Source of the DNA: Sphingomonas sp. IW22
GTDB taxonomy: Bacteria > Pseudomonadota > Alphaproteobacteria > Sphingomonadales > Sphingomonadaceae
Assembly: GCF_041321155.1 (NCBI RefSeq)
Contig: NZ_JBGGWB010000010.1
Location: 1 to 53,460 of the forward strand
DNA length: 53,460 nucleotides
Direction of reading: 5' to 3'
Every line of letters starts with the position of its first letter. The first letter of the stretch is position 1. Under the pieces are notes generated by a model, which was given only the letters and a program-made list of their open reading frames with translations, made no database searches and was not told the origin of the DNA. Below are positions 5,303-33,175 of this stretch, piece by piece. Made by a program: the position numbers and the translations under genes.

Positions 5303-5328
5303 AATACGTAGCGGCGGACGTTCCCCTC
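5303..5328 (-). promoter_or_regulatory. ECF-type promoter, variant spacer (site E)
   Basis: The minus strand reads GAGGGG, 14 bases, CGTATT, ahead of the broken DUF2231 gene. All other copies of this motif in the window have 15 bases, so this one has probably lost a base along with the decay of its gene. Confidence 0.6.
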
Positions 5329-5478
5329 ACGGCTCATCGTGCCACCAAGCGTCTGCACCGTTGCAAAATCGGTACGTTCAGCCCGAGCGAAGTAACGGTC
5401 CACTTAACGGAACGGCTCGACGCTGGCCGACCGGCGGCTTAGGTCTCGCTTTAACGAAGGGGGCATCGCAACGACAAC

Positions 5479-6792
5479 ATGGCCGCGCAACTTGATCAAA
5501 TAACTACCAAAGAGGATCACGACGGCCTTGTGCGTCGGCTCATTACCCGTTGGCGTGACGATCCGGGCGCGACCTATCGAAGCTGGTTCCTGTGGGACGA
5601 GCGGCTGAAGAATTTTCGTTCGATCCGGCGCGGTATCACCCAGGTCGTCGGCGAGATCGAGCGCGGTTCGTTTGGCGTCGCCTATCGCGGATCGTCGCTC
5701 GAAACCGTCGTCCATTCCGTTGCCGAACAGCGCCAAATCTTCAAAGGTGCGGACCATGCGTTCCTCTGGAAACCGAAGCTGCGCATCCCCGACATATACG
5801 AGAGCCCCGAGAACCAGCGCGCGTTCGGCCGCCTGCTAGACGCCTGTTCGTGTTGCGACACGGCCGAGGAGATCATCGGCCATATCCACGCGATCGACCG
5901 CCTGAAGATCAAGGGGCTTGGGCCTGCTGTCGCCAACCTCCTCTACTTCCTTCACCCGACGCTGGTGCCGCCCTTCAACACCGCGATCGTCAAGGGTTAC
6001 AACGCGCTGACGGGGGCGAACGTGAAGCTTGGGAGCTGGGAGCATTTCCTAGCGATGCGAACCGGCATCCTCGACCTCAACGACCGCTTCCGCGACCTTT
6101 TATCGAACGACTTGGGCGCGATCGGCGGCTTGCTGTTCGACATCGGCTCCGATCGCTACCCGGCCCCGCCGCTCGACGTGAGCGGCGCGGCTCTGGCGAG
6201 CTGGGGGCAGCGGCTCGAGGCGGCGCGCGAAGAGGCGCGCACGCTTAGCAAGGCCGCGCAGCGTGAAGGCGAGAACGAGCGCACCCATACCGAAATTCAG
6301 GCATGGCTTCGCGATCTAGGCTTGGCACTCGGCTATGACGTATGGATCGCCGCAAACGATCGCAGCCGAGCCTTCAACGGATCGCCCTTGGGCGCAGGGT
6401 GCCTTGAGCGCTTGCCCGAGACGATCGCGAGGTCGAAGGGCGCTGATTCCATCCGGCTGATCGACGTGCTGTGGCTTGAAAAGGCCGGCGATCACGTCGC
6501 CGCAGCGTTCGAGGTGGAGCATTCGACGTCGATCTATTCGGGCATCGTCAGGATGCTCGACCTGGCCTTGAGCGGTAGCGACCTTCACGCGACCGCGGGA
6601 CTGTTCCTCGTCGCGCCCGACGCGCGCGAGGCGGACGTTCGTGCGCAATTGCAGCGGCCCGCGTTCAGCCGCGTCGCCGACCTCGACATATCCTACCTCC
6701 CTTACGGCGAGCTGGAGAGGAACCGCGAGGCCATCGCGCGGTTCGGATCGGGGCTGAAGGCGATCAAGGCCGTATCCAGCAAGCTCGCCTGA
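5479..6792 (+). CDS. Putative nuclease: helix-hairpin-helix plus PD-(D/E)XK-like domain
   Basis: A 437-residue soluble protein that I do not recognise by name. Residues ~143-165 (LKIKGLGPAVANLLYFLHP) look like a helix-hairpin-helix DNA-binding element. The C-terminal ~170 residues start with ERTHTEIQAWLRDLGLALGYDVWIA. They contain an aspartate (IRLIDVLWLE, near residue 329) followed by AAFEVEHSTSI near 343-353, the D...ExE layout of restriction-endonuclease-like folds. Related C-terminal domains are often annotated as type II restriction endonucleases. No methyltransferase is adjacent. The start ATG at 5479 follows a weak ribosome site. It could be a defence nuclease or an accessory protein of unknown role. 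Confidence 0.55.
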   Translation: MAAQLDQITTKEDHDGLVRRLITRWRDDPGATYRSWFLWDERLKNFRSIRRGITQVVGEIERGSFGVAYRGSSLETVVHSVAEQRQIFKGADHAFLWKPKLRIPDIYESPENQRAFGRLLDACSCCDTAEEIIGHIHAIDRLKIKGLGPAVANLLYFLHPTLVPPFNTAIVKGYNALTGANVKLGSWEHFLAMRTGILDLNDRFRDLLSNDLGAIGGLLFDIGSDRYPAPPLDVSGAALASWGQRLEAAREEARTLSKAAQREGENERTHTEIQAWLRDLGLALGYDVWIAANDRSRAFNGSPLGAGCLERLPETIARSKGADSIRLIDVLWLEKAGDHVAAAFEVEHSTSIYSGIVRMLDLALSGSDLHATAGLFLVAPDAREADVRAQLQRPAFSRVADLDISYLPYGELERNREAIARFGSGLKAIKAVSSKLA

Positions 6793-6796
6793 CACG

Positions 6797-6820
6797 CCCC
6801 GCGCGAGGGCTGGCGCGGGG
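6797..6820. terminator. GC hairpin after the nuclease-like gene
   Basis: CCCCGCGC (6797-6804) pairs with GCGCGGGG (6813-6820) across an 8-base loop, starting a few bases after the stop at 6792. There is no U-tract. It overlaps the ECF-type motif at 6805-6831, so one of the two readings may be coincidental. Confidence 0.4.
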
Positions 6821-6831
6821 AGCCACGTATC
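6805..6831 (+). promoter_or_regulatory. ECF-type promoter upstream of DUF4396 gene (site Q)
   Basis: GAGGGC, 15 bases, CGTATC. The -10 ends 25 bases before the ATG. Immediately downstream CCTCTA/TAGAGG (6831-6836 with 6842-6847) forms a small hairpin that would cover the GAGGAG ribosome site. Confidence 0.6.
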
Positions 6832-6856
6832 CTCTAGCATGTAGAGGAGAGCTGCC

Positions 6857-7741
6857 ATGACGATGCCTTCCCCGGCCCCCTGGCTCGACGCCGTGTTGAT
6901 CGGATGGTTCGTGCTGACCGCGATATCGGTCGCTTACGTCGCGTGGGATGCCTTCACCCGCAACCCCGAGTTGCGGGTGATGAAATGGGGGTGGCTGCTG
7001 GTCACGCTCTACGGCGGCCCGATCATGGCCGCGGCCTATGTCCTGTCCTGCCAGGAACCGGCGAACGAGCGGCACGAGGACTTCGTTCGGCCGCTCTGGA
7101 AGCAGGCGTTCGGGTCGGCCATTCATTGCATGGCGGGTGACGCGACCGGCGTCATCGCCGCGGCCGCGATCACCACGGCACTCGGCCTGCCGATGTGGCA
7201 GGACGTGATTGCGGAATATGTGTTCGGCTTCGCGTTCGGGCTGCTGATTTTCCAGGCGCTGTTCATGCGCGACATGGCGGGCGGTTCCTATTGGGGGGCG
7301 CTTCGCATGTCGTTCATCCCCGAATGGCTTTCGATGAATGCCGTTATGGCCGGCATGATCCCGACGATGGTGGTGTTGATGAGCCGGGACATGGCTGCGA
7401 TGCACGCCAACTCGCTTCGCTTTTGGGGCGTCATGTCGCTTGCGACGCTTGTCGGCTTCGCCGTTGCCTACCCTATCAACCTTTGGCTTGTCGGCGTCCG
7501 GTTGAAGCACGGCATGGGCACGGTGCGCGTACTCGGGCATGGCGGGCACGAGGTCGCCGCGGACCGGCAATCGGCTACGCCGATGCCGGACATGAAGCAC
7601 GATGCGATGGCAGGGATGAGCGGCATGGGGACGGGCCCGCGCGTGACCGGACCGCAGATCGTCGCGATGACGGCGCTGACGCTCCTAATGCTTGGCGCGG
7701 GCATCATAGTTGCAACGCTGTTCGGCCGATGGGCGATGTAG
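6857..7741 (+). CDS. DUF4396 membrane protein with Met/His-rich loop
   Basis: A 294-residue inner-membrane protein of the DUF4396 family, repeatedly found in copper-resistance clusters; its biochemical role is unknown. There are about seven hydrophobic helices. An early pair flanks the cytoplasmic AWDAFTRNPELRVMKWGW segment, followed by the conserved AIHCMAGDATGVI motif and GGSYWGALRMSFIPEWLSMN. Between the penultimate and last helices (residues ~225-260) is a likely metal-binding stretch (HGGHE, MPDMKHDAMAGMSGMG). ATG at 6857 has GAGGAGAG upstream. The ECF-type promoter suggests that it belongs to the copper regulon. Confidence 0.8.
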   Translation: MTMPSPAPWLDAVLIGWFVLTAISVAYVAWDAFTRNPELRVMKWGWLLVTLYGGPIMAAAYVLSCQEPANERHEDFVRPLWKQAFGSAIHCMAGDATGVIAAAAITTALGLPMWQDVIAEYVFGFAFGLLIFQALFMRDMAGGSYWGALRMSFIPEWLSMNAVMAGMIPTMVVLMSRDMAAMHANSLRFWGVMSLATLVGFAVAYPINLWLVGVRLKHGMGTVRVLGHGGHEVAADRQSATPMPDMKHDAMAGMSGMGTGPRVTGPQIVAMTALTLLMLGAGIIVATLFGRWAM

Positions 7742-7769
7742 CATCGCCTCGATCGACGGAGATCGCGAC

Positions 7770-7796
7770 AAGGGGTGATTCCGCGGCGCGCGTATC
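7770..7796 (+). promoter_or_regulatory. ECF-type promoter upstream of broken copper-storage gene (site G)
   Basis: AAGGGG, 15 bases, CGTATC, ending 34 bases before the ATG at 7831. It differs from the GAGGGG consensus at the first base only. Confidence 0.65.
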
Positions 7797-7830: not shown

Positions 7831-7935
7831 ATGCACCAGATCAACCCCGACATGAAGGCGTGCATGGACGCCCTGCCACGAATGCCATGTGCCCTGCCTT
7901 CACATGGCGATGAACCATTGCCTTAAATGGGTGGC
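7831..7935 (+). pseudogene. Cys-rich four-helix copper-storage protein, frameshifted N-terminal remnant
   Basis: The start MHQINPDMKACMDA matches the intact gene at 18161 almost residue for residue. One extra C in GACGCCCTGCC (against GACGCCTGCC in the intact copy) shifts the frame. Correcting it restores the CHECH, CLHMAMNHC pattern. The similarity then stops near 7935 and the sequence continues into a sigma-factor remnant. An ECF-type promoter is retained upstream, and AGGTAGAGAG precedes the ATG. Confidence 0.85.
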
Positions 7936-8221
7936 CAGCACGCCGTGCGGCAATTTGTCATTGGCGGTGCCAATTGGCAGGGAGGCCGAGGCTGTCCCGG
8001 GAGACCGAAACGCGATTGAAGACGCCGTAGCCAATCGACAGGAACTGGACCGGGCGACACGTGCCATCGCCGTGTTGCCAACGACCTTGAAGGAATCGCT
8101 GGTCCTCCGGACTATCGAGGGCATCAGCCAAGTCGAAACCGCACTGATACTCGACATAAGCGAGAAGGCGGCCGAAACGCGTCTCTATCGCGCCCGCCAA
8201 CGGGCAGCATCGCTGTCGTAA
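7936..8221 (+). pseudogene. ECF sigma factor, region 4 remnant fused behind copper-storage head
   Basis: The frame open from GTG 7889 to 8221 carries a sigma-70 region 4 (RAIAVLPTTLKESLVLRTIEG, ISQVETALILDISEKAAETRL, read as two adjacent blocks). It is clearly paralogous to the C-terminus of the intact ECF sigma at 31828-32400 (LPATLKETLLLRTVEGLSQ, ISGKAVETRLRRARERL). Region 2, needed for core and -10 recognition, is gone. If the single-base insertion upstream were corrected, the copper-storage N-terminus would be in frame with this region 4. The chimera probably arose by deletion between a copper-storage gene and a second sigma locus. Confidence 0.8.
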
Positions 8222-8265: not shown

Positions 8266-8292
8266 GAGGGGTAAGCGATCTGCCGTCGTATC
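8266..8292 (+). promoter_or_regulatory. ECF-type promoter upstream of acyltransferase (site F)
   Basis: GAGGGG, 15 bases, CGTATC, located 45 bases after the sigma remnant stop. The intact sigma gene likewise has its dependent promoter immediately after its stop. The ATG at 8299 is too close to the -10 to carry a ribosome site, which favours the ATG at 8359. Confidence 0.65.
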
Positions 8293-9531: not shown

Positions 9532-9558
9532 GAGGGGTGGATGGATTACGCACGTATC
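9532..9558 (+). promoter_or_regulatory. ECF-type promoter cut off from its gene by IS66 (site K)
   Basis: GAGGGG, 15 bases, CGTATC. Before the IS66 insertion (removing 9596-12672 and one target copy) this promoter would have stood about 100 bases upstream of the DUF305 membrane gene at 12742. Confidence 0.65.
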
Positions 9559-9595: not shown

Positions 9596-9622
9596 GTAAG
9601 CGTGGTCAGCAGGCCGTCTTGC
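9596..9622 (+). repeat. IS66 terminal inverted repeat, left
   Basis: It starts GTAAGCGTGGTCAGCAG and ends CTTGC. It pairs with 12646-12672 over 27 bases with three mismatches. Confidence 0.92.
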
Positions 9623-9693
9623 GGTAGCGCCGGTAGCAGGGATGCTTGTCGCCTTTGACGAGGGCGCGGCGGTGCGGGAAGTTTTGGGTTCTA

Positions 9694-9727
9694 CGACCAG
9701 TCATACGAGCACTCGTATGACTGGTCG
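9694..9727. promoter_or_regulatory. Perfect 16-bp hairpin over the IS66 tnpA start
   Basis: Left arm CGACCAGTCATACGAG, two-base loop CA, right arm CTCGTATGACTGGTCG. The ATG of tnpA (9717-9719) lies in the right arm. In a transcript started outside the element the start codon would be folded away. This fits the known habit of transposons of blocking read-through translation of transposase; that role is inferred here. Confidence 0.75.
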
Positions 9728-10091
9728 GATGGAGGTGGTTGGCCGGGTGTCAGGCCGGCGCCGATGGTCGGACACGGAGAAGCTGGAGATCCTGGCGGAG
9801 GCGTTCCGACCGGGGGGTCGGGTCTGCGATGTCATCGCGCATCGCGAGGTATCGAGCAGCCTGATCTACACGTGGCGCAAGCAGCTGCGCGAAGGCAAGT
9901 TGGCCGGGGCGATGCCGTCGCTGCCGGTATTTGCCGAGGTACAGGTGGCGGAACTGACGCCGCCAGCGCCACAGCCGGCGCCATATCCATCGGGGCTCAT
10001 CCAGATCGAGTTGCCGGGCGGCGTGCGGGTGAGTGTCGACGCAGGCGTGGATGCAGATGTGCTTGCACGGGTTTTGTCGGTGCTGCGATGA
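9717..10091 (+). CDS. tnpA: IS66 TnpA accessory protein (HTH)
   Basis: A 124-residue protein with an N-terminal helix-turn-helix of the transposase-8/IS3-OrfA type (RRRWSDTEKLEILAEAF, then VSSSLIYTWRKQLREGKL). The variable C-terminal half ends ARVLSVLR. It is one of two small proteins that IS66 elements need besides the DDE transposase. Start ATG 9717 sits in the hairpin; ATG 9642 is possible but gives an untypical N-terminus. The stop overlaps the tnpB start (ATGA), indicating translational coupling. Confidence 0.9.
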   Translation: MTGRMEVVGRVSGRRRWSDTEKLEILAEAFRPGGRVCDVIAHREVSSSLIYTWRKQLREGKLAGAMPSLPVFAEVQVAELTPPAPQPAPYPSGLIQIELPGGVRVSVDAGVDADVLARVLSVLR

Positions 10092-10441
10092 GCCCGGTGC
10101 CAGTGCCGTTGCCGACGCGGGTGTTCCTGGCGTGCGGCGTGACCGACATGCGCAAGGGGTTCGATGGCTTGGCGGTGCTGGTGCAGCAGGTGCTGGCGCA
10201 GAACCCGCATTCGGGTGGCTTGTTCGCGTTCCGTGGCAAGCGGGGGCATCTGGTCAAGCTGCTGTGGTTCGACGGCCAGGGGCTTTGCCTGTTTTCCAAG
10301 AGGCTCGACCGTGGCCGTTTCGTCTGGCCAGTGACAGCGACCGGCACGGTGACGCTGACGCCAGCGCAATTGTCGATGCTGCTGGAAGGCATCGACTGGC
10401 GGCGCCCCGAGCGGACGTTCACGCCGACGCTGGCAGGGTAG
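10088..10441 (+). CDS. tnpB: IS66 TnpB (Orf2) protein
   Basis: A 117-residue IS66 Orf2 protein with the diagnostic TRVFLACGVTDMRKGFDGLA, KRGHLVKLLWFDGQGLCLFSKRL and a terminal LSMLLEGIDWRRPE. Its exact job in transposition is not settled in the family. It starts at ATG 10088 inside the tnpA stop, and tnpC begins 61 bases downstream. Confidence 0.95.
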   Translation: MSPVPVPLPTRVFLACGVTDMRKGFDGLAVLVQQVLAQNPHSGGLFAFRGKRGHLVKLLWFDGQGLCLFSKRLDRGRFVWPVTATGTVTLTPAQLSMLLEGIDWRRPERTFTPTLAG

Positions 10442-10502
10442 GAACGGCGGTTTTGCGCCACTTTCTCTCGCTCGCCGACCTGCAATCTGCTATGGAAACG
10501 GA

Positions 10503-12047
10503 GTGTCGGAAGCGCCTGTTTCCCCTGCTGATGCGACCGCGCGGATCGCCGCGCTGGAGGCTTCGCTCGCCCGGGCCAATGCCGCGCTTGCCGCCCGCGA
10601 CCTGCTCATCGATACGCTGCGCGGACAGATCGCGCGGCTGCGGCGAATGCAGTTCGGCGCGTCGTCCGAAAAGCTGGGGCGCGAGATTGAGCAACTCGAA
10701 CTGGCGCTGGAGGAACTCGAGACCGAGCGCGATGCGCCTGGGCCTGAGATGGTTGACCCTGGCGTGGCGGTTCGGCCGGTGCCCGTCCGCAGTCTGCCCG
10801 GACATCTGCCGCGCGAGGAGGTCGTCCACGAGCCGGCGTCGGGTGCCTGCACCTGCCCGGACTGTGGCGGTGCGTTGCGCGCGCTCGGCTTGGACACACA
10901 CGAGATGCTCGACATTGTGCCGGTGCGCTGGCGCGTCGTGCGCAACGTCCGCCCCAAATACAGTTGCCGGGTATGCGAGAAGATTGTCCAGGCACCCGCA
11001 CCGGTGAGCGCTGTGGCCAGAGGCAAGGCGACCTTCGCGACGCTGGCGCACGTCGTCGTCTCCAAGTTCGACCACCATCTGCCGCTCTACCGCCAGGCCG
11101 AAATGATGGCAGCGCAAGGTATCGACATCGACCGCTCGACATTGGCGAGCTGGACCGGACAGGCCGCAGCACTTCTCGACCCCATCGTCAGCCGCATCCG
11201 CGACGAGGTGCTCAAGGCCGACAAGATCCATGCCGACGACACGCCGGTGCCGGTGCTCGACCCCGGCCGGGGCAAGACCGCGACTGGCCGGTTATGGGTG
11301 TACGCGGCCGACGACCAGGCATCCGGCAGCACGGCGCCGCGCGCGACCTGGTATCGCTTCACGCCAGACCGCACCGCCGCGCACCCGCTGTCTCATCTCG
11401 CCGGCTTCCGCAACTTCCTGCAGGCGGATGCCTATGCCGGTTATGACGGACTGTATCGGGGTGGCGTCACCGAGGTGGCATGCTGGGCACATTTCCGGCG
11501 CAAGGTCTTCGACCTGCACGAACGGTCGCCTACACCGCTGACCACCGATATCCTCGAGCGGATCGGCACGCTTTACGCTGTCGAGGCCGAGGTCCGTGGC
11601 CAACCACCCGACGTGCGATGGCGAGCCCGACAGGAGAAAAGTCGACCGCTGGTCGACGCCTTGCGCGAGGTGCTCGACGCCAGCTTGCGCCGCCTGTCGT
11701 CGAGGTCCGACATGGCAAGGGCCATCGCCTATGGCACGAAACGCTGGCTAGCGCTGTCGCGCTTCCTGGGTGATGGTCGCCTGGAGATCGACAACAATAT
11801 CGCGGAGCGTGCGCTGCGCGGTGTCGCGGTCGGACGCCGCAACTGGCTGTTCGCCGGTTCGCGCGCAGGCGGCGAGCGGGCCGCGGCCATCTACACCATC
11901 ATCCAGACGTGCAAGGCGAACGGCGTCGACCCACCGGCGTATATCGCCGATGTCATCGCCAAGGTGGCCGGTGACTGGCCAGCCAGCCGCTGGGACGAAC
12001 TCATGCCGTGGAACTGGTCCCCCGAACCTGCCAGACTGGCGGCATGA
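10503..12047 (+). CDS. tnpC: IS66 TnpC DDE transposase
   Basis: A 514-residue transposase. The N-terminal coiled coil (RIAALEASLARANAALAARD) is followed by a zinc ribbon (CTCPDCGG and CRVCEK, near residues 115-160). The DDE catalytic domain includes KIHADDTPVPVL, FLQADAYAGYDGLY and IDNNIAERALRG. It starts at GTG 10503; an upstream GGAAACGGAG serves as ribosome site. The stop overlaps the passenger gene start (ATGA). Full length with no frameshift. Confidence 0.95.
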   Translation: MSEAPVSPADATARIAALEASLARANAALAARDLLIDTLRGQIARLRRMQFGASSEKLGREIEQLELALEELETERDAPGPEMVDPGVAVRPVPVRSLPGHLPREEVVHEPASGACTCPDCGGALRALGLDTHEMLDIVPVRWRVVRNVRPKYSCRVCEKIVQAPAPVSAVARGKATFATLAHVVVSKFDHHLPLYRQAEMMAAQGIDIDRSTLASWTGQAAALLDPIVSRIRDEVLKADKIHADDTPVPVLDPGRGKTATGRLWVYAADDQASGSTAPRATWYRFTPDRTAAHPLSHLAGFRNFLQADAYAGYDGLYRGGVTEVACWAHFRRKVFDLHERSPTPLTTDILERIGTLYAVEAEVRGQPPDVRWRARQEKSRPLVDALREVLDASLRRLSSRSDMARAIAYGTKRWLALSRFLGDGRLEIDNNIAERALRGVAVGRRNWLFAGSRAGGERAAAIYTIIQTCKANGVDPPAYIADVIAKVAGDWPASRWDELMPWNWSPEPARLAA

Positions 12048-12646
12048 GCGTCGAGACCATCGCCCGCCTGCATATCATCCTCAACGACATCGAACCCGCC
12101 ATCTGGCGCCGGGTCGACGTGCCGGCCACCGCCAGCCTCAAGATGCTCCACGACATCGTCCAGGCTGCGATGGGTTGGGAGGACTATCATCTGTGGCATT
12201 TCGAGGCCGCCGATCGGCGCTACGGCATCCCCGACCCAATGTGGCCGGAGAGCGGCATGACCGCTGCAAAGAACGTGAAGCTCGCGACGCTCATCAACCG
12301 GGGCGTGCGGGAGTTCGTCTATACCTACGACATGGGCGACGACTGGCGGCACACCATCACCGTCGAGACGGTCGGCCCCGGCGAACCCGACGTCAAATAT
12401 CCGTGCTTCGTCGACGGGGAACGGCGCTGCCCGCCCGAAGATGTCGGCGGCTTGCCCGGGTTCGAGATGTTCCTCGATGCCATGGCCGACCCCGGCCACG
12501 AAGAACACGACCGCTTACGTGAATGGTATGGCGGCCCCTACAACGCCGACGACATCGACGAACGCTTCACCCGCCGCGCCGTCGCCGCCATCGCCATCCG
12601 CCGCCACGCCGGCAAACTCGCCTACCAAAAGAGCCGCACTCAATAG
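12044..12646 (+). CDS. pRiA4b ORF-3 family passenger protein of IS66
   Basis: A 200-residue protein of the pRiA4b ORF-3 family (IS1096 TnpR-like), whose function is unproven. Motifs are LNDIEPAIWRRVDVPATASL, HDIVQAAMGWEDYHLWHFE, the FVYTYDMGDDWRHTI core and the acidic C-terminal DRLREWYGGPYNADDIDE. It starts inside the tnpC stop and its own stop touches the right inverted repeat, so it belongs to the element. GTG 12008 is a possible but unlikely earlier start. Confidence 0.85.
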   Translation: MSVETIARLHIILNDIEPAIWRRVDVPATASLKMLHDIVQAAMGWEDYHLWHFEAADRRYGIPDPMWPESGMTAAKNVKLATLINRGVREFVYTYDMGDDWRHTITVETVGPGEPDVKYPCFVDGERRCPPEDVGGLPGFEMFLDAMADPGHEEHDRLREWYGGPYNADDIDERFTRRAVAAIAIRRHAGKLAYQKSRTQ

Positions 12647-12672
12647 CAAGGCGGTCTGCTGCCCACGCTTAC
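12646..12672 (-). repeat. IS66 terminal inverted repeat, right
   Basis: The minus strand reads GTAAGCGTGGGCAGCAG and then ACCGCCTTGC, matching the left repeat over 27 bases with three differences. Confidence 0.92.
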
Positions 12673-13241: not shown

Positions 13242-13268
13242 GAGGGGGGCGCGCTTCCGGCGCGTAGA
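13242..13268 (+). promoter_or_regulatory. ECF-type promoter upstream of secreted DUF305 gene (site H)
   Basis: GAGGGG, 15 bases, CGTAGA, about 27 bases before the CTG start. Confidence 0.65.
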
Positions 13269-13295
13269 AAATTGACACGACCCGAGGAGATCGAG

Positions 13296-17608: not shown

Positions 17609-17619
17609 GGAGGCGATAC

Positions 17620-25260: not shown

Positions 25261-26271
25261 ATGCGCGGGGTAATGATGAGGTTGCGGTTGACCGATCAGG
25301 GCTGGACTGGAGATCCTGAGGAGGTCATCGACTGTCTGATAGTGGGCGGTGGTCCAGCGGGCCTCATGACCGCGATCTATCTGTCGCGGTTTCTCAGGAG
25401 CTGCGTCGTCTACGATGCGGCGGCAGGGCGCGCCGCGTCCATCCCGCGCTCGCACAACCTGCCAGGATTTCCCGGCGGCATTTCCGGCGTCACGTTTCTT
25501 GCCCGTTTGCAGGCTCAGCTGCGCGAATATGGCGGTACGGTCCAGAGAGGTGAGATTGACGCAATCGTCGCGTCAGGCGACCACTTCTCGGCAAGCTGCG
25601 AACTGAACGTCCTGTATGCGCGGACCGTTGTCCTTGCGACGGGCGTCGTCAACCGGCGTCCCGAGATGCCTGATGCGATGCATGACATCGGCGTGGCGCG
25701 TGGGCTTCTCCGCTATTGCCCGATCTGCGATGGTTATGAGGCCCGGCGCATGAACGTGGCGGTGCTCGGCGGCGATGGTCATGGTGCTGAAGAAGCCGAA
25801 TTCCTGAGGGCTTATGGGGCCAAGGTCACGCTTCTGGCCGAACGCTCGCTCGATCTTGGGCCGACCGAACTTGCCAAGCTGGACCAGCAGGGCATTGATG
25901 TCGCCCCCTCGCCTGTCGGGCAGTTGCGTCTTGGCGAGTGTGTCGAGGTGAGGCTGGCCAATGGCCTGGAGCTACAATTCGACACGCTTTACCCCGCACT
26001 CGGCTCATCACCTCGGACGCGGCTTGCCTCTTTGCTCGGAGCACAGCTCAGCGAATCCGGGTGCGTGCTAACCAATGCCCACCAACAAACCTCGGTTAAG
26101 GGTCTCTACGCAGTCGGCGACGTCGTGGAAGGGCTCGATCAGATCAGCGTCGCAGCCGGACAAGCGGCGATCGCTGCGACCGCAATTCATAACCTGTTGC
26201 GCGACCGCGACAGTGGATTGTCATCCGCCCTCGCCGGGCTGTATTCCGCTCGGAGCGTACCGCCGACGTAG
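25261..26271 (+). CDS. Thioredoxin-reductase-like FAD/NAD(P) oxidoreductase
   Basis: A 336-residue flavoprotein. The FAD motif DCLIVGGGPAGLMTAIYLSR is near residue 24-43, a central redox CPICDGYE near 155-162, the NAD(P) motif VAVLGGDGHGAEEAEFL near 169-185, and the C-terminal LYAVGDVVEGLDQISVAAGQA FAD contact. Most likely it reduces a disulfide partner, here possibly repairing copper-oxidised thiols. No thioredoxin gene is adjacent. ATG 25261 or ATG 25273 could be the start. Its divergent ECF promoter pairs it with copCD. Confidence 0.82.
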   Translation: MRGVMMRLRLTDQGWTGDPEEVIDCLIVGGGPAGLMTAIYLSRFLRSCVVYDAAAGRAASIPRSHNLPGFPGGISGVTFLARLQAQLREYGGTVQRGEIDAIVASGDHFSASCELNVLYARTVVLATGVVNRRPEMPDAMHDIGVARGLLRYCPICDGYEARRMNVAVLGGDGHGAEEAEFLRAYGAKVTLLAERSLDLGPTELAKLDQQGIDVAPSPVGQLRLGECVEVRLANGLELQFDTLYPALGSSPRTRLASLLGAQLSESGCVLTNAHQQTSVKGLYAVGDVVEGLDQISVAAGQAAIAATAIHNLLRDRDSGLSSALAGLYSARSVPPT

Positions 26272-26600: not shown

Positions 26601-27326
26601 TCAGAACGCCAAGTGGTTTATTCCGCCATGCATGAAGGTTCCGCCGAGGAACCCCTGAATTGAGATCGCGAGCGTCATCAGGCCAAGCACCACCCAATAC
26701 AACGACCGCGACCGCTCGGGACCCTTGCGGTGGCGGGCTGCCATCCAAGCCAGCACGACGCCGAAGACCGCGATCGATGTTCCGAGCCAGCGATGCGTCA
26801 TCAGGATAGGGTTGCGGTCGGTCAGGTAGAACCCGCCTGCGAACCAGCCCAGGAACGCCGCTGCGATCGCTCCCAGCGCGCCGACCACCAGCATTATGTG
26901 TGCGACATGCTGATAGTCCCGGTTGCGGCGCCATAACCCGAACAGCTCTAACCCGAACGCGCCGATGAACATGGCGATGGGAAAATGAATGACCATGGTG
27001 TGCAGCCGGCCCAGCCAGCTCACAAGCCGTTCGCCGAAACTCTTGTTCTTGTTGGCGGTCTCCTCGTGCATGCCGCCCATGTCCATGTCGTCGCCGGCGA
27101 TGTCGCGGCCACCCATGTTCATGTCCACAGTCGACATAGAGCCCATGCCCATGTGGCCGTCGCCAGCGTCCGCCCCATCTGCTTTCTGCGTCTCGGCTGC
27201 GCTGTTAGCGACCGGCCCGGGACCCGCCCCGAGCGCATTGTGATCTTCGTGCGCCGATGCCGACGTGCTGACTGATATTGCAACCGCAAGAAGTATAGCG
27301 AAGGTCCCGCCTCGTTTGCCGCCCAT
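26601..27326 (-). CDS. DUF2231-type copper-regulon membrane protein
   Basis: A 241-residue membrane protein with a signal peptide (ending STSASAHEDH) and a periplasmic Met/His-rich segment (DGHMGMGSMSTVDMNMGG, DDMDMGGMHEE). About five helices follow, beginning with the conserved SWLGRLHTMVIHFPIAMFIG and closing with FLGGTFMHGGINHLAF. The family role is unknown, but the segment suggests copper binding. The ECF -10 ends at 27362, too close for ATG 27356; ATG 27326, preceded by AAGGGGTCAGG, is therefore the start. A broken paralogue is at 4927-5266. Confidence 0.8.
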   Translation of the reverse strand: MGGKRGGTFAILLAVAISVSTSASAHEDHNALGAGPGPVANSAAETQKADGADAGDGHMGMGSMSTVDMNMGGRDIAGDDMDMGGMHEETANKNKSFGERLVSWLGRLHTMVIHFPIAMFIGAFGLELFGLWRRNRDYQHVAHIMLVVGALGAIAAAFLGWFAGGFYLTDRNPILMTHRWLGTSIAVFGVVLAWMAARHRKGPERSRSLYWVVLGLMTLAISIQGFLGGTFMHGGINHLAF

Positions 27327-27361
27327 CACCTGACCCCTTGATCCGTGTTCATCCATTCCCG

Positions 27362-27388
27362 TTTACGCACGCCCGGCCTTCTCCCCTC
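27362..27388 (-). promoter_or_regulatory. ECF-type promoter for DUF2231 gene (site B)
   Basis: The minus strand reads GAGGGG, 15 bases, CGTAAA. It decides the start codon of the gene downstream. Confidence 0.72.
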
Positions 27389-27505: not shown

Positions 27506-27955
27506 TCAGCTGCCGTGGCGGGCGAACAAGCGGCGTCCGCCGGTGCCGAAGGCGACCACGTCATAGGCCTGCGCCTTGACGCCCGGCACTTCCATTCCCG
27601 GCGAGCCGAGCGGCATACCGCCGACCGCCAGGCCCCGCACGCCCTTGGGCCGGGTCGCAAGAGCCCGCTTCATGTCGGCGATCGGCACGTGGCCCTCGAA
27701 AGCCATGCCATCGGCGATCGCGGTGTGGCAGGACGAGAGGTCCGCGGGAACGCCCGCGCGCTTCTGCAGCGCCGGGCGGTTAGAATCATCGACGACGCGC
27801 ACCTGCCGGCCGAGCTGCTGCTGCACCTGCGCCGCCCACTTGGCGCAACAGCCGCAGCCGGGGTCGCGGTGCATAACGATCGGGGTAGCCGCGCTGGCGG
27901 CAACCGGAACCAACAAGGCTGCGGCAGTAAGCGCAAATCGCAACGCTGACTTCAT
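27506..27955 (-). CDS. DUF411 metal-binding periplasmic protein
   Basis: A 149-residue DUF411 protein. The signal peptide ends PVAASAATP, and the family core HRDPGCGCCAKWAAQVQQQL has a Cys cluster, followed by SSCHTAIADGMAFEGHVPIAD and GLAVGGMPLGSPGMEVP. It is a known companion of copABCD clusters and is expected to bind copper or other metals in the periplasm; its role is not established. It is the last gene of the copA-copB-DUF305 operon, 60 bases after DUF305. AAGGAG lies before ATG 27955. Confidence 0.88.
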   Translation of the reverse strand: MKSALRFALTAAALLVPVAASAATPIVMHRDPGCGCCAKWAAQVQQQLGRQVRVVDDSNRPALQKRAGVPADLSSCHTAIADGMAFEGHVPIADMKRALATRPKGVRGLAVGGMPLGSPGMEVPGVKAQAYDVVAFGTGGRRLFARHGS

Positions 27956-28015: not shown

Positions 28016-28390
28016 TTACTGAGGACGCTTGCCCATCGACCGGAGCATCGCCTGGAGTTCACCGATGCTCTTGTTCTGCTCGGCAATCGATTTCTGAGCC
28101 ATTTGCCGGGTCTTCGCATCGGGCGACTCCCGGAGAACGATCTGCGACATGGCGATCGCACCGCGGTGATGCTCGATCATCTTGCGGACCCACGTCTCGC
28201 TCGCATTAGCGCCCTTGGCCTTCATCATCTTTTCATGCATCGCCATTTCGGCGGGCATGAAGGGCGTGTTCATGCCAGGCATGTTGTCGTGGTTCATGCC
28301 TTGCATTTTCGAGTGGTCCATGCCCTGCTGAGCCAAAGCGGGGCTCGCCGACATCGCGGCCAGAGCCAGAAGCGTTACTGCCTTGAACAT
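28016..28390 (-). CDS. Secreted DUF305 protein in the copA operon
   Basis: A 124-residue periplasmic protein with the signal peptide MFKAVTLLALAAMSASPALA, a Met/His cluster (GMDHSKMQGMNHDNMPGM), and a DUF305 core with ETWVRKMIEHHRGAIAMSQI. ATG 28390 stands behind AAGGAGAA; an upstream in-frame start would wreck the signal peptide. It is a close paralogue of 13296-13676. It lies 47 bases after copB in the same direction. Confidence 0.9.
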   Translation of the reverse strand: MFKAVTLLALAAMSASPALAQQGMDHSKMQGMNHDNMPGMNTPFMPAEMAMHEKMMKAKGANASETWVRKMIEHHRGAIAMSQIVLRESPDAKTRQMAQKSIAEQNKSIGELQAMLRSMGKRPQ

Positions 28391-28437
28391 CGATTTCTCC
28401 TTCTTGGCCTTGGCCAACGCAACAAGACTAGTTGGCC

Positions 28438-29736
28438 TTAGAACCATGTGCGAATGCCCAGAACGAGGCTGGTCGACGCCGCGCCCTGGCCTTCGGCGCG
28501 CGCGAAGCGGGCTGTGTCCCCGAAGCTGCGGTCGTACGATATGCCCACATAGGGCGCGAACTCGCGCCTGATCTCGTAGCGGAGACGCAGACCGAGTTCG
28601 GCCGTGGAAAGGCCTGAGCCGATGCCGATTTCCGGCACGTCCTGCGCGGCGAAGTTGAGTTCGGCGCGTGGCTGAAGAACCAGCCGCTGCGTGATCCGCT
28701 GATCGTAATAACCTTCCAGGCGCCCCAGCAGGTCGCCCTTGTTGGACAGGAACAGTGCGCCCTCGACATCGAAGAAGCCGGGTGCCAGCGTTTCGAAGCC
28801 GACCGACGCATAGACGCGCGAGGGGTTGGGCTTGAAATCGTAGCGGACGCCAAGCTGTATATCGGTGTATGGGCCAATGGCGCGCGAATAAAGCGCCTGT
28901 ACCTCCGCCGCTTCCAGACTTCCCCCGATATTCCCTTCGCCCTCGGTCTTGAGCACCAGCCGGTTGATATCACCCCCATACCAGGCACTGCCGTCCCACC
29001 GGTAACCATCGCGACCGTCCCGGATCTGGACTTCAGCCAGATTGAATATGACCTGGGAGAAATTCTGCCCGCCGTGCATCGACCGCAGATGCTGCTGCGA
29101 ATGCGCCATAGCAGCGGCAGAGTAGACCTGGTCCGCGGCCCGATCGGTCGGGATGGGCGGCGGCGGAGCGGTGCCGGCCTGAAGGTTGGTGCCGATCATC
29201 GCCGCGCCCGTGGCTGAGGGCATGCTTCCCATGCCGTGTCCCGGCATGCCTTGCATCGCGCCCGAACTTTGGCCCATTCCCGGCATCGATCCATGGTCCA
29301 TGCCTTGCATAGCACCTGGCTCAGCGGGGTTGGCGCCGCCGGACGCACCTGGCATCGCGGACATGTCGTGCCCCGAACTGGCATCAGGTTTGGCTTCAGG
29401 CATATTCATACCGGGCATGGCGGACATGTCATGACCGGCGTGAGGATCAGCAACAGCCGGTCCACCGACCGGAGGCTTGGCGGACCGACTTGCGGCAGGC
29501 TTGGCCCCCAATCCCGCCTTCGCGCGCGGTGTCGACCTGGCGGCAGGCTTCGCGGACTCCTTGTGCACGGCGGGCTTGGTCGCTGAGGGCTTCTTGGCGG
29601 CAGGCTTTTTTACCGCTGGCGCCTTTGGCGGCGGCATCTTCATGCCGGGCATGTTGGAATGGTCCATCTGCGCGGCCGCCGGCGTTGCGAGGCCAAGCGC
29701 CGCGCCGCCGGCGATCAGGAGGAACTTAGGCTGCAT
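28438..29736 (-). CDS. copB: Outer-membrane copper resistance protein CopB
   Basis: A 432-residue protein. The signal peptide (ending ATPAAAQ) is followed by a long disordered Met/His/Lys/Pro region with repeated MPGM and GHDMSAMPGMN motifs (residues 23-190) that should bind copper. Then comes the CopB beta-barrel: DQVYSAAAMAHSQQHLRSMHGG, VIFNLAEVQIRDGRDGYRWD, and EIRREFAPYVGISYDRSFGD, to a terminal aromatic WF. It overlaps the end of the copA oxidase by 11 bases, so the two are translated together. Confidence 0.93.
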   Translation of the reverse strand: MQPKFLLIAGGAALGLATPAAAQMDHSNMPGMKMPPPKAPAVKKPAAKKPSATKPAVHKESAKPAARSTPRAKAGLGAKPAASRSAKPPVGGPAVADPHAGHDMSAMPGMNMPEAKPDASSGHDMSAMPGASGGANPAEPGAMQGMDHGSMPGMGQSSGAMQGMPGHGMGSMPSATGAAMIGTNLQAGTAPPPPIPTDRAADQVYSAAAMAHSQQHLRSMHGGQNFSQVIFNLAEVQIRDGRDGYRWDGSAWYGGDINRLVLKTEGEGNIGGSLEAAEVQALYSRAIGPYTDIQLGVRYDFKPNPSRVYASVGFETLAPGFFDVEGALFLSNKGDLLGRLEGYYDQRITQRLVLQPRAELNFAAQDVPEIGIGSGLSTAELGLRLRYEIRREFAPYVGISYDRSFGDTARFARAEGQGAASTSLVLGIRTWF

Positions 29737-31732
29737 CGCGATTCTCCTCGCCCATCGGGCGAACCGTCACGACACGCATCATCCCCGCGGTCATGTGATA
29801 GAGATTGTGGCAGTGGAACGCCCAGTCGCCGGGCGCATCGGCCGTTACGTCGAATGTCATCTTACCGCCTGGCGCCACATTCACAGTGTGCTTGCGAGGC
29901 CCAAAGTCGCCATGTCCGGTCACCAACTCGAAGAAGTGGCCGTGCAAATGGATGGGGTGCGGCATCATCGTGTCATTGACCAGGGTAACGCGCGCGCGCT
30001 CGTCCTTGCGGAACGGGATGGGGTCGGCAGGGTCGCTCATCTTCTGGCCGTCAAAGCCCCACATGTAGCGCTCCATATTGCCCGTGAGGTGGATCTCCAA
30101 CTGACGCGACGGGGCGCGAACGTCCGGGTTGCGGTCCAGCGCGACAAGGTCGCGATAGGTGAGCACGCGATGATCCGCATCCTCCAGCCCCTGCGGCGGC
30201 TCGCCCGTGCGGTCCTTCGGCATCGGCGAGATGGTCTGCACTCCCGGCCCCATCTTGACGCCGGGCGCGTTCTTGGGGTTGCGCATGTTCATGTCCATGC
30301 TGCCGCCTGACCCATGATCCATCCCGGCCATGCCGCCGCTGCTCATCTGACCATGGTCCATGCCCGCCATCCCGGCAGCGCCCGCCGCCATTTGGCTATG
30401 GTCCATCCCAGGCATAGCGCCGCTCATCTGGTCGCCCCCCATCCCAGCCATGCTGGCCATCGCAGCGCCTATCGCCTTCGTTCCGTGATCGGTGGGCTCT
30501 TTCCACCCGGTGAGCTTCCACAGGTTGCGCGAGGCATTCTGCATCAACGTGGGATCCGGCCCGCGCTTTGCGACCGGGTTCTCGTCCGCCATACCGGACA
30601 TCCCCTCCATCCCGCTCATGTCCATGCCCATGTCGGTCATGGTCAGCAACGTGCGTGGGCGGAGCGGCGGGACCGGGGCGATCATGCCCTCGCGCGGGGC
30701 CAGTGTCGCGCGCCCCATGCCGGATCGGTCGATCGCCTCGGAAACGAAGCTGTAGGCGCGGTCCTCGGGCGTCACGATCACGTCGAAGGTTTCCGCGACG
30801 CCGATCTGGAATTCGTCCACGGTTACCGGCCGGACGTTCTGGCCGTCGGCCTGCACCACCGTCATCGGCAGGTCAGGGATGCGCACGTTGAAGTTCGTCT
30901 GCGCCGCGGCATTGACGATGCGCAGCCGAACCCGCTCGCCCGGTCGGAAGAGACCCGTCCAGTTGTCGTAAGGTCCAAAGCCATTGACCAGGAAGGTGTA
31001 GGTCGAACCAGTGACGTCCGCGATGTCCGCCGGGTCCATCCGCATCTGCCCCCAATCGAGGCGATCCTTAAGGCGCATTTCGCGGCCGGCCAGCAGCCCA
31101 CTCAGCGTCGGGCGTTGATAGTTGAAATAGGCGCCGCCCATCTGCTTGAGCTTGCGAAAGATTTCCTCGCCCGTCATTTCGCTATGGTCGGAGAGGACGA
31201 TCACATGCTCGCGGTCGAACGCGACTGGGTCGGCACCCGCCGGATCAATCACGATGGGTCCGTAGAGTCCTGCCTGCTCCTGCTCGCCCGAGTGGCTGTG
31301 ATACCAGTAGGTGCCGGACTGCAAGATCGGGAACTCGTACACAAAGGTCGAACGCGCCTTGATGCCGGGGAAGCTGATCCCGGGTACGCCGTCCATTTGG
31401 AACGGCAGAATGAGCCCGTGCCAGTGGATCGAGCTATCTTCGTCGAGGTTGTTGGTCACCGCAAGGCGGACCTTCTGGCCCTCTTTGAGGCGGACGAGTG
31501 GTGCCGGGACCGTGCCGTTTACCCCGATCGCGGGCGTCGTGATCCCGTCCATGACGAGCTTCATCCTGTCGATCGTCAGCGCGATGTTTGTGCCCGACAC
31601 GGTCGGCAGGGGCCTGGCGATGCCGCGCGACACAGGTTGCGCCCAAGCCGGCAGGTAGGCCGACATGGCCAGCGTGCCGCCAAGCATGGCGGTTCCGCGC
31701 ATTACGTCGCGCCGGTTTAGATTGCGGCTCAT
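29726..31732 (-). CDS. copA: Multicopper oxidase CopA (periplasmic)
   Basis: A 668-residue Tat-exported oxidase (NRRDVMRGTAML signal). The four copper motifs are visible: SSIHWHGLILPFQMDG, GTYWYHSHSGEQEQAG, MPHPIHLHGHFFELV and WAFHCHNLYHMTAGMM. A long Met/His region near residues 380-510 (GMDMSGMEGMSGM, MDHSQM, MDHGQM) is typical of CopA/PcoA. It oxidises Cu(I) in the periplasm. ATG 31732 follows GAAGGAAAGG; the upstream in-frame ATG would add a poly-Pro leader translated from a 12-C run. The ECF promoter overlaps the stop of the sigma gene upstream. Confidence 0.95.
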   Translation of the reverse strand: MSRNLNRRDVMRGTAMLGGTLAMSAYLPAWAQPVSRGIARPLPTVSGTNIALTIDRMKLVMDGITTPAIGVNGTVPAPLVRLKEGQKVRLAVTNNLDEDSSIHWHGLILPFQMDGVPGISFPGIKARSTFVYEFPILQSGTYWYHSHSGEQEQAGLYGPIVIDPAGADPVAFDREHVIVLSDHSEMTGEEIFRKLKQMGGAYFNYQRPTLSGLLAGREMRLKDRLDWGQMRMDPADIADVTGSTYTFLVNGFGPYDNWTGLFRPGERVRLRIVNAAAQTNFNVRIPDLPMTVVQADGQNVRPVTVDEFQIGVAETFDVIVTPEDRAYSFVSEAIDRSGMGRATLAPREGMIAPVPPLRPRTLLTMTDMGMDMSGMEGMSGMADENPVAKRGPDPTLMQNASRNLWKLTGWKEPTDHGTKAIGAAMASMAGMGGDQMSGAMPGMDHSQMAAGAAGMAGMDHGQMSSGGMAGMDHGSGGSMDMNMRNPKNAPGVKMGPGVQTISPMPKDRTGEPPQGLEDADHRVLTYRDLVALDRNPDVRAPSRQLEIHLTGNMERYMWGFDGQKMSDPADPIPFRKDERARVTLVNDTMMPHPIHLHGHFFELVTGHGDFGPRKHTVNVAPGGKMTFDVTADAPGDWAFHCHNLYHMTAGMMRVVTVRPMGEENRDAA

Positions 31733-31772
31733 GCCTTTCCTTCGCTCCAGTTCAATGCTTGCGGCCGGCGGC

Positions 31773-31784
31773 GGGGGGGGGGGG
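31773..31784 (+). repeat. 12-base G homopolymer (C on the copA strand) in the copA leader
   Basis: Twelve consecutive G, flanked by GGCGGC/GCCGCC that could pair across it. It lies between the ECF -10 (31803) and the copA ATG (31732). Confidence 0.85.
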
Positions 31785-31802
31785 CCGCCGACCTTATCTT
31801 TC

Positions 31803-31829
31803 ATTACGCGCAAATAGGCTCATCCCCTC
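31803..31829 (-). promoter_or_regulatory. ECF-type promoter of the copA-copB operon (site A)
   Basis: The minus strand reads GAGGGG, 15 bases, CGTAAT. The -35 overlaps the TGA stop of the sigma gene. Confidence 0.75.
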
Positions 31830-32400
31830 ACGCGAAGTCGAGAATTTTCGATAATCTTTCACGCGCACGCCGGAGCCGCGTCTCCACGGCCTTTCCGCTG
31901 ATCCCCAGCGCGGCGGCGGTTTCCGCCTGGGACAAGCCCTCCACGGTCCGCAGCAAAAGCGTCTCCTTGAGCGTGGCCGGCAGCTCGGACACCGCGCGCG
32001 AAAGCCGCGCAAGCTCTGCGCGATCGAAGGTGATGGCGTCGGCACCCGGCGCCTCGTCCCGCTCACTCTCCATGGTGTCGGGCGGCAGCGAAGAGGCGAA
32101 CGATAGTATCTGGCGTATGCGCCGCCGCCTGTGCCAGTCGCGGCTCTTGTTGATCGCCACGCGGGTCAGCCACGCAGCGAGCGGCCGATCTCCGTCATAC
32201 TTTCGCAAGTTCTGAAAGGCGGCCACGAAGCATTCCTGAGTGAGGTCAAGCGCCTCTTCGGCGTCGCCGATATGCGAGCGGATCAGGCGGTAGACCGGTC
32301 TTTGGTGCCGCCGCATGATCTCAGCGAACGCAGCCTGACGTCCGCCGAGCGTCAAGGCGGCGAGTTCGCCGTCCGTGCAGGCCGCGAGATCAAGGCTCAC
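31828..32400 (-). CDS. ECF sigma factor of a CnrH-like metal system
   Basis: A 190-residue sigma-70 family ECF factor. Region 2 has FAEIMRRHQRPVYRLI and DLTQECFVAAFQNLRKYD ahead of PLAAWLTRVAINKSRDWHRR. Region 4 has LPATLKETLLLRTVEGLSQA and ALGISGKAVETRLRRARERL. It overlaps the CnrX-like gene by four bases (ATGA) and is followed by copA. The order small membrane protein, periplasmic sensor, sigma is that of CnrY-CnrX-CnrH. I propose that it recognises GAGGGG-N15-CGTA, found before its own operon and eleven other genes or gene relics. A broken paralogue is at 7936-8221. Confidence 0.9.
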   Translation of the reverse strand: MSLDLAACTDGELAALTLGGRQAAFAEIMRRHQRPVYRLIRSHIGDAEEALDLTQECFVAAFQNLRKYDGDRPLAAWLTRVAINKSRDWHRRRRIRQILSFASSLPPDTMESERDEAPGADAITFDRAELARLSRAVSELPATLKETLLLRTVEGLSQAETAAALGISGKAVETRLRRARERLSKILDFA

Positions 32401-32840
32401 CGCGCGTCTGCGGTCAGCGCCTTCACCACCGCGCGGTCAAACGTCCTCGCCTGGTCGGGCCGCAGGATCTGCCGCATCGCGAACATATGGTTCAACGTCT
32501 CCTTCTGGAGCTCACCCATCGCGCCGTGCGAACGATCGACGGCGGCCGCGACCTGCGGCCCGTTACCATGTTCGGCCTCGATGGCGGCGGCGAGCCGGGC
32601 GTTGTCGGCTCTGAGTTCCAGCTCCAAGGCACGCCTTCGAACGGTGAAGTGAGACTCCAGCATCTGGAGCTTGGTCTGTTGAGCTTCGTCCAGCTCGAGC
32701 CCGTCGTGGAGCAAGCTGTGAAGCTCAACGCCCGGGCTTGGCGGGGAGGGGAATAACTCACGTCCAGCCCAAACGCCTGCGACCGCCGCCACGAACGCGA
32801 TGATGGCGATCAGCATCGCCCTCCGGGCGCCGCTCGTCAC
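32397..32840 (-). CDS. CnrX-like periplasmic metal sensor
   Basis: A 147-residue protein with one N-terminal membrane anchor (AMLIAIIAFVAAVAGVWAG) and a periplasmic helical-hairpin domain of the CnrX/NccX/ZraP type (SLLHDGLELDEAQQTKLQML, then AAAIEAEHGNGPQVAAAVD, ending LRPDQARTFDRAVVKAL). Histidines in HSLLHDG and ESHF resemble the CnrX metal ligands. In the Cnr system this protein senses metal and frees the sigma factor through CnrY. Both neighbouring genes overlap it by four bases. Confidence 0.82.
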   Translation of the reverse strand: MTSGARRAMLIAIIAFVAAVAGVWAGRELFPSPPSPGVELHSLLHDGLELDEAQQTKLQMLESHFTVRRRALELELRADNARLAAAIEAEHGNGPQVAAAVDRSHGAMGELQKETLNHMFAMRQILRPDQARTFDRAVVKALTADAR

Positions 32841-33127
32841 TGGAACGCGAGCAAGGTCGAAGGCGCTAGCGGCATGGCAGGCCCGAAGGGTGTTAGCGTC
32901 GGCACCTGCGCAGTCGCCGCTGTGGACGACAATCCGCCGCCCACCACTCCCAAGGCGACTGCGCCTAGCGCTGCCAGTATGCCGGACCGCAACGTCACTC
33001 CCGCGCCCGCGCGCCGCTCCGCCGTAATCAACCGCATGACCTCGCCTTCCAGTTCAGCGAGCCGGGGATGAAGCGGTTGTTCGCCAAGGCGGCGCAACGC
33101 GCTGTCTAAATCCATGTCCATGGTCAT
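32837..33127 (-). CDS. CnrY-like membrane anti-sigma factor
   Basis: A 96-residue protein. The short cytosolic N-terminus (DLDSALRRLGEQPLHPRLAELEGEV) could bind the sigma factor. It is followed by one membrane helix (ILAALGAVALGVVGGGLSS) and a short periplasmic tail, the architecture of CnrY-type anti-sigma factors. Sequence similarity alone would be weak; the call rests on size, topology and operon order. ATG 33127 follows GGAGGA. The -10 of its promoter is 22 bases upstream, which rules out the longer upstream frame. Confidence 0.72.
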   Translation of the reverse strand: MTMDMDLDSALRRLGEQPLHPRLAELEGEVMRLITAERRAGAGVTLRSGILAALGAVALGVVGGGLSSTAATAQVPTLTPFGPAMPLAPSTLLAFQ

Positions 33128-33148
33128 TCCTCCGCCGTCCTCACATCC

Positions 33149-33175
33149 ATTACGCACGGCCGGCGAACACCCCTC
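33149..33175 (-). promoter_or_regulatory. ECF-type promoter of the sigma operon (site J)
   Basis: The minus strand reads GAGGGG, 15 bases, CGTAAT, implying autoregulation. Confidence 0.75.

What the first reader, a model, noticed from the sequence alone, without database searches (positions are those of the whole stretch)
5303..33175. A dispersed copper regulon defined by one ECF promoter, GAGGGG-N15-CGTA, seen twelve times
Sites (strand): 5303-5328 (-, spacer 14), 6805-6831 (+), 7770-7796 (+), 8266-8292 (+), 9532-9558 (+), 13242-13268 (+), 18098-18124 (+), 25099-25125 (-), 25161-25187 (+), 27362-27388 (-), 31803-31829 (-), 33149-33175 (-). Eleven have exactly 15 bases between the hexamers, and all point at the nearest downstream copper-type gene. 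Other GAGGGG hexamers inside genes (for example 1664 and 2348) lack CGTA at that distance. Only one intact ECF sigma gene is present (31828-32400), and its own operon has the site. Known: ECF factors read short bipartite promoters and usually their own. Inference: this sigma controls the whole set, including genes of unknown function (DUF4396, DUF2231, DUF305, acyltransferase, flavoprotein).
Basis: partly seen in the sequence, partly recalled or inferred. Interest (0 to 1): 0.88.

Follow-up and report, generated by a model that had tools for sequence, protein, structure and literature searches.

The report
CnrH-type sigma-factor promoters for copper genes
A plasmid-like copper-resistance island carries one repeated start signal read by a membrane-controlled sigma factor of the cobalt/nickel CnrYXH type, apparently turned to copper, and the host genome holds two more copies of the same switch that use the same signal.

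Summary
The motif is real and is an ECF promoter. All twelve sites exist, but only eight are exact GAGGGG-N15-CGTA; three have one mismatch and one a 14-base spacer. A matrix trained on other records ranks ten of the twelve as the ten best spacer-15 hits of the window. In 298 family genomes, all 102 copies of an extended motif lie in genomes with this sigma gene, none in the 169 without it.

The CnrH-dependent promoters of Cupriavidus metallidurans, with mapped starts, carry nearly the same motif with a 16-base spacer. Here the switch sits on copper genes: a multicopper oxidase follows the sigma gene in 44 of 47 loci.

"One sigma controls all" is not supported: the genome has two more complete cassettes with the same motif, plus two relics. 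Five sites are weak on sequence; one is cut from its gene by an IS66 element and one faces a broken gene. The X sensors keep CnrX's metal-site residues, so copper as the signal is inferred from gene company, not shown.

The parts
32837..33127 (-). Y: 96-aa protein with one hydrophobic segment (judged by eye); anti-sigma candidate in the CnrY slot
   Evidence: translation; same slot in relatives; similarity to CnrY only 5.9 bits
32397..32840 (-). X: periplasmic metal sensor, Metal_resist PF13801, CnrX/NccX-like
   Evidence: five CnrX metal-site residues kept (four of the five recalled)
31828..32400 (-). ECF sigma factor, CnrH-like
   Evidence: 4cxf CnrH, E 4e-31; CnrH as query finds it first in the genome
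33149..33175 (-). promoter of the Y-X-sigma operon, matrix score 23.5
31803..31829 (-). promoter overlapping the sigma stop codon, facing the multicopper oxidase, 22.3
   Evidence: same topology as cnrCp
29726..31813 (-). multicopper oxidase CopA/PcoA (longest ORF; the S. cloacae start lies about 100 nt after the site)
28438..29736 (-). CopB outer-membrane protein
28016..28447 (-). DUF305 protein, same direction behind CopB
27506..27955 (-). DUF411 protein
27362..27388 (-). promoter of the DUF2231 gene, 23.9
26601..27356 (-). DUF2231 membrane protein (longest ORF; start uncertain)
   Evidence: sites also before DUF2231 genes in other loci
25161..25187 (+). promoter of the FAD oxidoreductase gene, 22.8
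25261..26271 (+). NAD(P)/FAD oxidoreductase
25099..25125 (-). promoter of copC-copD, 28.0 (best in the window)
24696..25064 (-). CopC
23765..24691 (-). CopD
18098..18124 (+). promoter of a four-helix-bundle copper-binding protein gene, weak here (14.6), 17.6 in S. cloacae
18146..18493 (+). DUF326 protein, annotated in relatives as four-helix bundle copper-binding protein
13242..13268 (+). promoter of a DUF305 gene, 20.4
13272..13676 (+). DUF305 protein (start uncertain)
9532..9558 (+). promoter-like site, 15.6, separated from its DUF305 gene by an IS66-family insertion
   Evidence: in S. cloacae pSCLO_2 the site stands directly before DUF305
9597..12672 (.). inserted IS66-family element with an extra ORF, absent at this place in pSCLO_2
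8266..8292 (+). candidate promoter before the acyltransferase gene, weak (13.5)
   Evidence: no other acyltransferase among the 219 sites
7770..7796 (+). promoter, 20.3, before a frameshifted copper-binding-protein relic that begins at 7831
7904..8221 (+). relic of a second CnrH-like sigma gene (C-terminal part)
   Evidence: 63% over 101 residues to the S. naphthae plasmid sigma
6805..6831 (+). degenerate site before the DUF4396 gene (10.0); the aligned S. naphthae site scores 19.3, the S. cloacae one 2.5
6857..7741 (+). DUF4396 protein
5303..5328 (-). doubtful site, spacer 14, score 12.0
   Evidence: 0 of 84 cassette sites have spacer 14

Best explanation
GAGGGG-N15-CGTA is the promoter of a CnrYXH-type transmembrane sigma switch used by Sphingomonadaceae (family name inferred from named relatives) for copper resistance. 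Without metal, the small membrane protein Y holds the CnrH-like sigma at the membrane. When the periplasmic CnrX-like sensor X binds metal (most likely copper), Y lets go and the sigma takes RNA polymerase to this promoter. Targets are its own Y-X-sigma operon (autoinduction), the oxidase-CopB operon whose promoter overlaps the sigma stop codon, copC-copD and satellite genes (flavoprotein, DUF2231, DUF305, copper-binding four-helix protein). Because the genome holds three such cassettes with one motif, the island's promoters are probably read by more than one sigma. Shown by computation: the motif, its fixed spacer, its co-occurrence with the sigma gene, the gene content, the CnrX and CnrH kinship. 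Inferred: anti-sigma action of Y, copper as signal, shared use by paralogues, start site about 9 nt after CGTA.
For: 219 sites against 0 reversed in 58 loci (training sites included). 201 of 219 precede relatives of island genes. Spacer 15 in 84 of 84 cassette sites, spacers 12-18 tested. Extended motif: 102 of 102 hits in sigma-positive genomes, 0 in 169 negative ones. Exact motif mean 3.57 with and 1.04 without the sigma. X best matches NccX/CnrX, the sigma best matches CnrH, and CnrH as query finds the three cassettes first. cnrCp GAGGGG-N16-CGTATA and cnrYp AAGGGG-N16-CGTATA, start on the ninth base after CGTA.
Against: With one mismatch the pattern is at background in G000. The best of 12 shuffled windows scores 15.5, so 9532, 18098, 8266, 6805 and 5303 are not distinguished by score alone; S. 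cloacae's counterpart of 6805 scores 2.5. Y has no significant similarity to CnrY. X keeps all five CnrX residues, which fits Co/Ni as well as Cu. Some window metal genes lack the site: CopA ATPase, CueR, RND trio, second P-type ATPase. Of five loci L131-L135, L135 has neither site nor oxidase. Outside the family the extended motif is at background: 4 hits, all in sigma-negative genomes, control 3. No expression data.
Confidence: 0.84

Rival explanations
1. One reading: the window's sigma alone reads all twelve sites, and the paralogues have private promoters.
For: Its own cassette sites and the copC, DUF2231 and flavoprotein sites share GAGGGG and mostly CGTAAT or CGTATT.
Against: C13 and C2 cassette promoters fit the same matrix (16.8-19.1 and 13.0-17.6); motif subtypes of the sigma clades overlap; the sigmas are alike in the region-2 and region-4 stretches aligned. 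Sites 6805, 7770, 8266 and 9532 end CGTATC, as do three sites of the S. naphthae plasmid whose sigma is nearest to the relic.
Confidence: 0.2
2. The switch still senses cobalt/nickel (or several metals), and the copper genes are induced by those or as a general periplasmic metal response.
For: CnrX metal-site residues are kept: H42 34 of 34, H46 34 of 34, E63 34 of 34, H119 33 of 34, M123 32 of 34.
Against: Genes served are copper-type: oxidase after the sigma in 44 of 47 loci; matches to the two RND pumps used as queries in only 3 of 47.
Confidence: 0.2
3. The motif is a binding site of an activator or repressor (CopR- or CueR-like), not a sigma promoter.
For: CueR lies in the window and two-component genes lie near the two other cassettes.
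Against: Asymmetric, fixed spacer, overlap with the sigma stop codon, mapped starts in the homologous cnr promoters; no site before CueR or the CopA ATPase in the window.
Confidence: 0.04

Closest known systems
CnrYXH of Cupriavidus metallidurans pMOL28 (cobalt/nickel)
   Same: Gene order Y-X-H, one promoter before Y and another just after H, X with the HHEHM residues, CnrH as best PDB match, promoter GAGGGG/AAGGGG-N16-CGTATA
   Different: Targets are copper oxidase, CopB, CopC-CopD and satellites instead of the CnrCBA pump; spacer 15 instead of 16; three cassettes in this genome; several dispersed targets
NccX (nickel-cobalt-cadmium resistance)
   Same: X best PDB match is NccX (4clv)
   Different: Target genes as above; ncc promoters not examined here
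CorE-type copper ECF of Myxococcus
   Same: ECF sigma that activates copper oxidase and copper ATPase genes (PMC10141476, passages)
   Different: CorE is regulated by its own Cys-rich C-terminal extension; here separate Y and X
SigAb-AabA-AabB of Acinetobacter
   Same: copper-responsive ECF with a small membrane anti-sigma whose model its authors compare with CnrY (PMC12153292, passages)
   Different: direct regulon is small (sigAb, relA, a small RNA); metal-resistance genes are indirect there

Membership tests
CnrYXH-type sigma switch | CnrH-like ECF sigma | tested here: met
   best PDB hit CnrH, E 4e-31; CnrH query ranks the three cassettes first at 111, 110 and 105 bits, next 53
CnrYXH-type sigma switch | CnrX-like periplasmic sensor with five metal-site residues (four recalled; M123 in PMC7689651, passages) | tested here: met
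CnrYXH-type sigma switch | CnrY anti-sigma in first position | tested here: inconclusive
   same slot, 96 against 95 aa, one hydrophobic segment by eye, but 5.9 bits only
CnrYXH-type sigma switch | promoters before Y and directly after H, of CnrH type | tested here: met
   spacer differs by one base
CnrYXH-type sigma switch | response to cobalt/nickel | not testable with these tools
   no expression data
Copper regulon | target genes are copper genes | tested here: met
   for most targets; not for the acyltransferase and the 120-aa protein
Copper regulon | induced by copper | not testable with these tools
   no expression data
CorE-type ECF | Cys-rich C-terminal extension | tested here: not met
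   sigma ends ...LSKILDFA, no cysteine in its C-terminal part

The most novel reading that the evidence does not exclude
A cobalt/nickel CnrX-type sensor was turned to copper without changing its first-shell metal ligands, and in sphingomonads the CnrH promoter became a family-wide currency: plasmid islands carry the promoters from gene to gene, three sigma paralogues share them, and promoters left by a deleted cassette stay in use, read in trans by the surviving sigmas.
Probability: 0.4. Interest if true: 0.75.

Novelty: new variant of a known kind. Interest (0 to 1): 0.6.

Why it matters
It ties a widespread copper-linked switch of sphingomonads, for which ten searches of the held library found no description, to the well-studied CnrYXH metal sigma system and to promoters with mapped starts. 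It assigns DUF2231, DUF305, DUF411 and a flavoprotein (and, on one case, DUF4396) to copper handling. It also poses a sharp question on metal choice: how does a sensor with CnrX's Co/Ni ligands serve copper genes?

Tried and rejected
Chance: rejected by shuffles, reversed controls and sigma-negative genomes. Activator site: rejected as above. 5303: not accepted. 14808(-), spacer 14, score 22.5: first taken as a missed site; it overlaps an 11-base inverted repeat, while homologous places with spacer 15 lie at L116 14055, before a 913-aa ORF that is 88% identical to the window's epimerase-VKOR protein, and at L118 12862, before a 123-aa hypothetical protein; left as a remnant candidate. 23687(+), 12.6: points away from its neighbours' strand, not accepted. 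Literature: searches gave no paper on a CnrYXH-type copper switch in sphingomonads; Grass 2000, the metal-ECF review and the ECF classification paper are not held, so this is no proof of absence. No structure was predicted.

Rows dropped: of 62 loci, matrix training used 53 (dropped L068, L104, L108 as partial and L109-L114 as unrelated sigmas, which hold 0 exact motifs). The downstream-gene count used 47 (also dropped L055, L059, L060, L061, L064, L066, whose contigs end just after the sigma). The spacer count used 46 (dropped L055, L059, L060, L074, L075, L105, L107; L105 has no site at the usual places). The X alignment used 31 loci plus three own cassettes. The nine loci were chosen because one search showed a motif beside the sigma, so their 9 of 9 with X, sigma, site and oxidase is biased. 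L131-L135 were the tool's own best matches; 4 of 5 have sites and oxidase. The extended pattern was made, whose records may include some of the 298 genomes.
Full report
Observation. All twelve stretches exist as given. Eight are exact GAGGGG-N15-CGTA; 6805, 7770 and 18098 have one mismatch in the first hexamer, and 5303 has a 14-base spacer. The window holds 14 matches at up to one mismatch, against a shuffle mean of 2.62 and a largest value of 7 in 100. The window is the whole of contig C10 of G000 (4.0 Mb). The exact pattern occurs 13 times in G000: 8 in the window, 2 on C2, 2 on C13, 1 on C1 (control 5). RAGGGR-N13-YGCGTA occurs 15 times: 8, 2, 3 and 2 (control 4). With one mismatch and a trailing W the pattern is at background (77 against 80).

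What sits there. On the minus strand, 33127-31828 encodes Y (96 aa), X (Metal_resist, PF13801) and an ECF sigma. X is nearest to NccX/CnrX in the PDB and the sigma to CnrH. The reverse test holds: CnrH finds the three G000 cassettes first at 111, 110 and 105 bits, next 53. One site precedes Y; the next overlaps the sigma stop codon and faces oxidase-CopB-DUF305. [quoted passage not shown] I took pMOL28 and that paper's start positions: cnrCp reads GAGGGG-N16-CGTATA and cnrYp AAGGGG-N16-CGTATA, the start being the ninth base after CGTA in both.

Other species. 62 loci came back for the sigma. In 880 kb they hold 148 exact motifs against 1 reversed. Of 53 loci used, 51 have a site right after the sigma gene and 39 have one 650-900 bases before it; of the other 14, 13 are the clade L069-L081, where the upstream sites lie about 1.5 kb away, and one is L105. 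In 84 of 84 such sites the spacer is 15 (spacers 12-18 tested, 46 loci). So seven of the twelve are strong and five weak on sequence. Caveat: loci L053-L055 carry nearly the same sigma as the window, so its own cassette sites are not independent of the training set.

Regulon. At score 15 or more the 58 loci give 219 sites against 0 reversed (training sites are among them). 201 of 219 precede relatives of island genes used as references: oxidase 46, CopC 42, Y 34, FAD oxidoreductase 20, cytochrome c 12, FliQ-annotated protein 11 (median 214 bases away), DUF305 11, DUF2231 8, DUF411 5, X 5, four-helix copper-binding protein 2, CopA ATPase 2, DUF4396 1, two others 1 each; 18 unassigned, several of them at contig ends. 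The loci were centred on the sigma, so copper company is partly built in. An oxidase starts within 900 bases after the sigma in 44 of 47 loci. In the window, CopA ATPase, CueR, the RND trio and the second P-type ATPase have no site within 400 bases upstream.

Genome-scale test. Of 298 family genomes, 129 have the sigma at E 1e-20. Exact motif: mean 3.57 with, 1.04 without (Mann-Whitney 2e-27; the reversed control is also higher with, 4.06 against 3.29), rising with copy number. Extended motif TGAGGGGT-N12-YGCGTA: 102 hits in 67 genomes, all sigma-positive; control 2. So about half of the sigma-positive genomes (62 of 129) lack this strict form. In a class sample the sigma is in 11 of 289 genomes, own and same genus included; the extended motif has 4 hits outside the own genome, all in sigma-negative genomes, control 3, that is background. 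Of five further loci, three from other families (L132-L134) show X, sigma and oxidase with one to three sites, one of the same genus (L131) shows three sites, and one (L135) shows neither site nor oxidase.

More than one sigma. G000 has complete cassettes on C13 (sigma 55%) and C2 (53%) with Y, X, oxidase, CopB, divergent CopC and the same motif. Two relics exist: a region-2 piece on C1 and the window piece at 7904-8221. Window 5515-7948 is 91% identical to the S. naphthae plasmid block of a hypothetical protein, DUF4396 and the four-helix protein, and the relic is 63% identical to that plasmid's sigma. So the left block looks like a second island of another clade that lost FliQ, CopD, CopC, Y, X and half its sigma (inferred by comparison with that plasmid) but kept sites 6805 and 7770. 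The S. naphthae sites aligned to them score 19.3 and 20.0; S. cloacae has lost the 6805 site (2.5) and keeps 7770 (20.3). In S. cloacae, the counterpart of 9532 stands directly before DUF305; in the window an IS66-family element of about 3.1 kb lies between.

Signal. CnrX's ligands (H42, H46, E63, H119 recalled; M123 in PMC7689651, passages) are kept in 34, 34, 34, 33 and 32 of 34 X proteins. Copper as the signal therefore rests on the company of genes, not on the site. Y resembles CnrY in place and size but not measurably in sequence; most Y proteins printed and the C2 one end in a LAPSTLL-like motif.

Verdict. A real ECF promoter set, a copper-linked variant of the CnrYXH kind, with three complete sigma cassettes in this genome. 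New variant of a known kind as far as the ten searches of the held library show.

Noticed in passing
7831-8221: Frameshifted copy of the four-helix copper-binding gene fused by deletion to the C-terminal part of a CnrH-like sigma gene; in S. cloacae pSCLO_2 the sigma part is annotated as a gene.
   Followed up: yes
9597-12672: IS66-family element with a passenger ORF (relatives annotated pRiA4b ORF-3) inserted between a promoter-like site and its DUF305 gene; absent at this place in pSCLO_2.
   Followed up: partly
14808 (-): Motif-like remnant with spacer 14 over an 11-base inverted repeat; a spacer-15 homologue on C1 (L116 14055) stands before a gene 88% identical to the window's epimerase-VKOR protein (20831-23536).
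   Followed up: partly
41486-47190 and 49301-52360: RND efflux trio and a second P-type ATPase without the motif upstream.
   Followed up: partly
L116 6357-6566 (-): Region-2 fragment of the same sigma kind on contig C1 (75% to the window's over 69 residues).
   Followed up: no
32849-32869 (-): Y proteins mostly end in a LAPSTLL-like motif, a candidate contact with X.
   Followed up: no
15113-18048: CopA-type ATPase and CueR: a parallel Cu(I) circuit inside the island.
   Followed up: no
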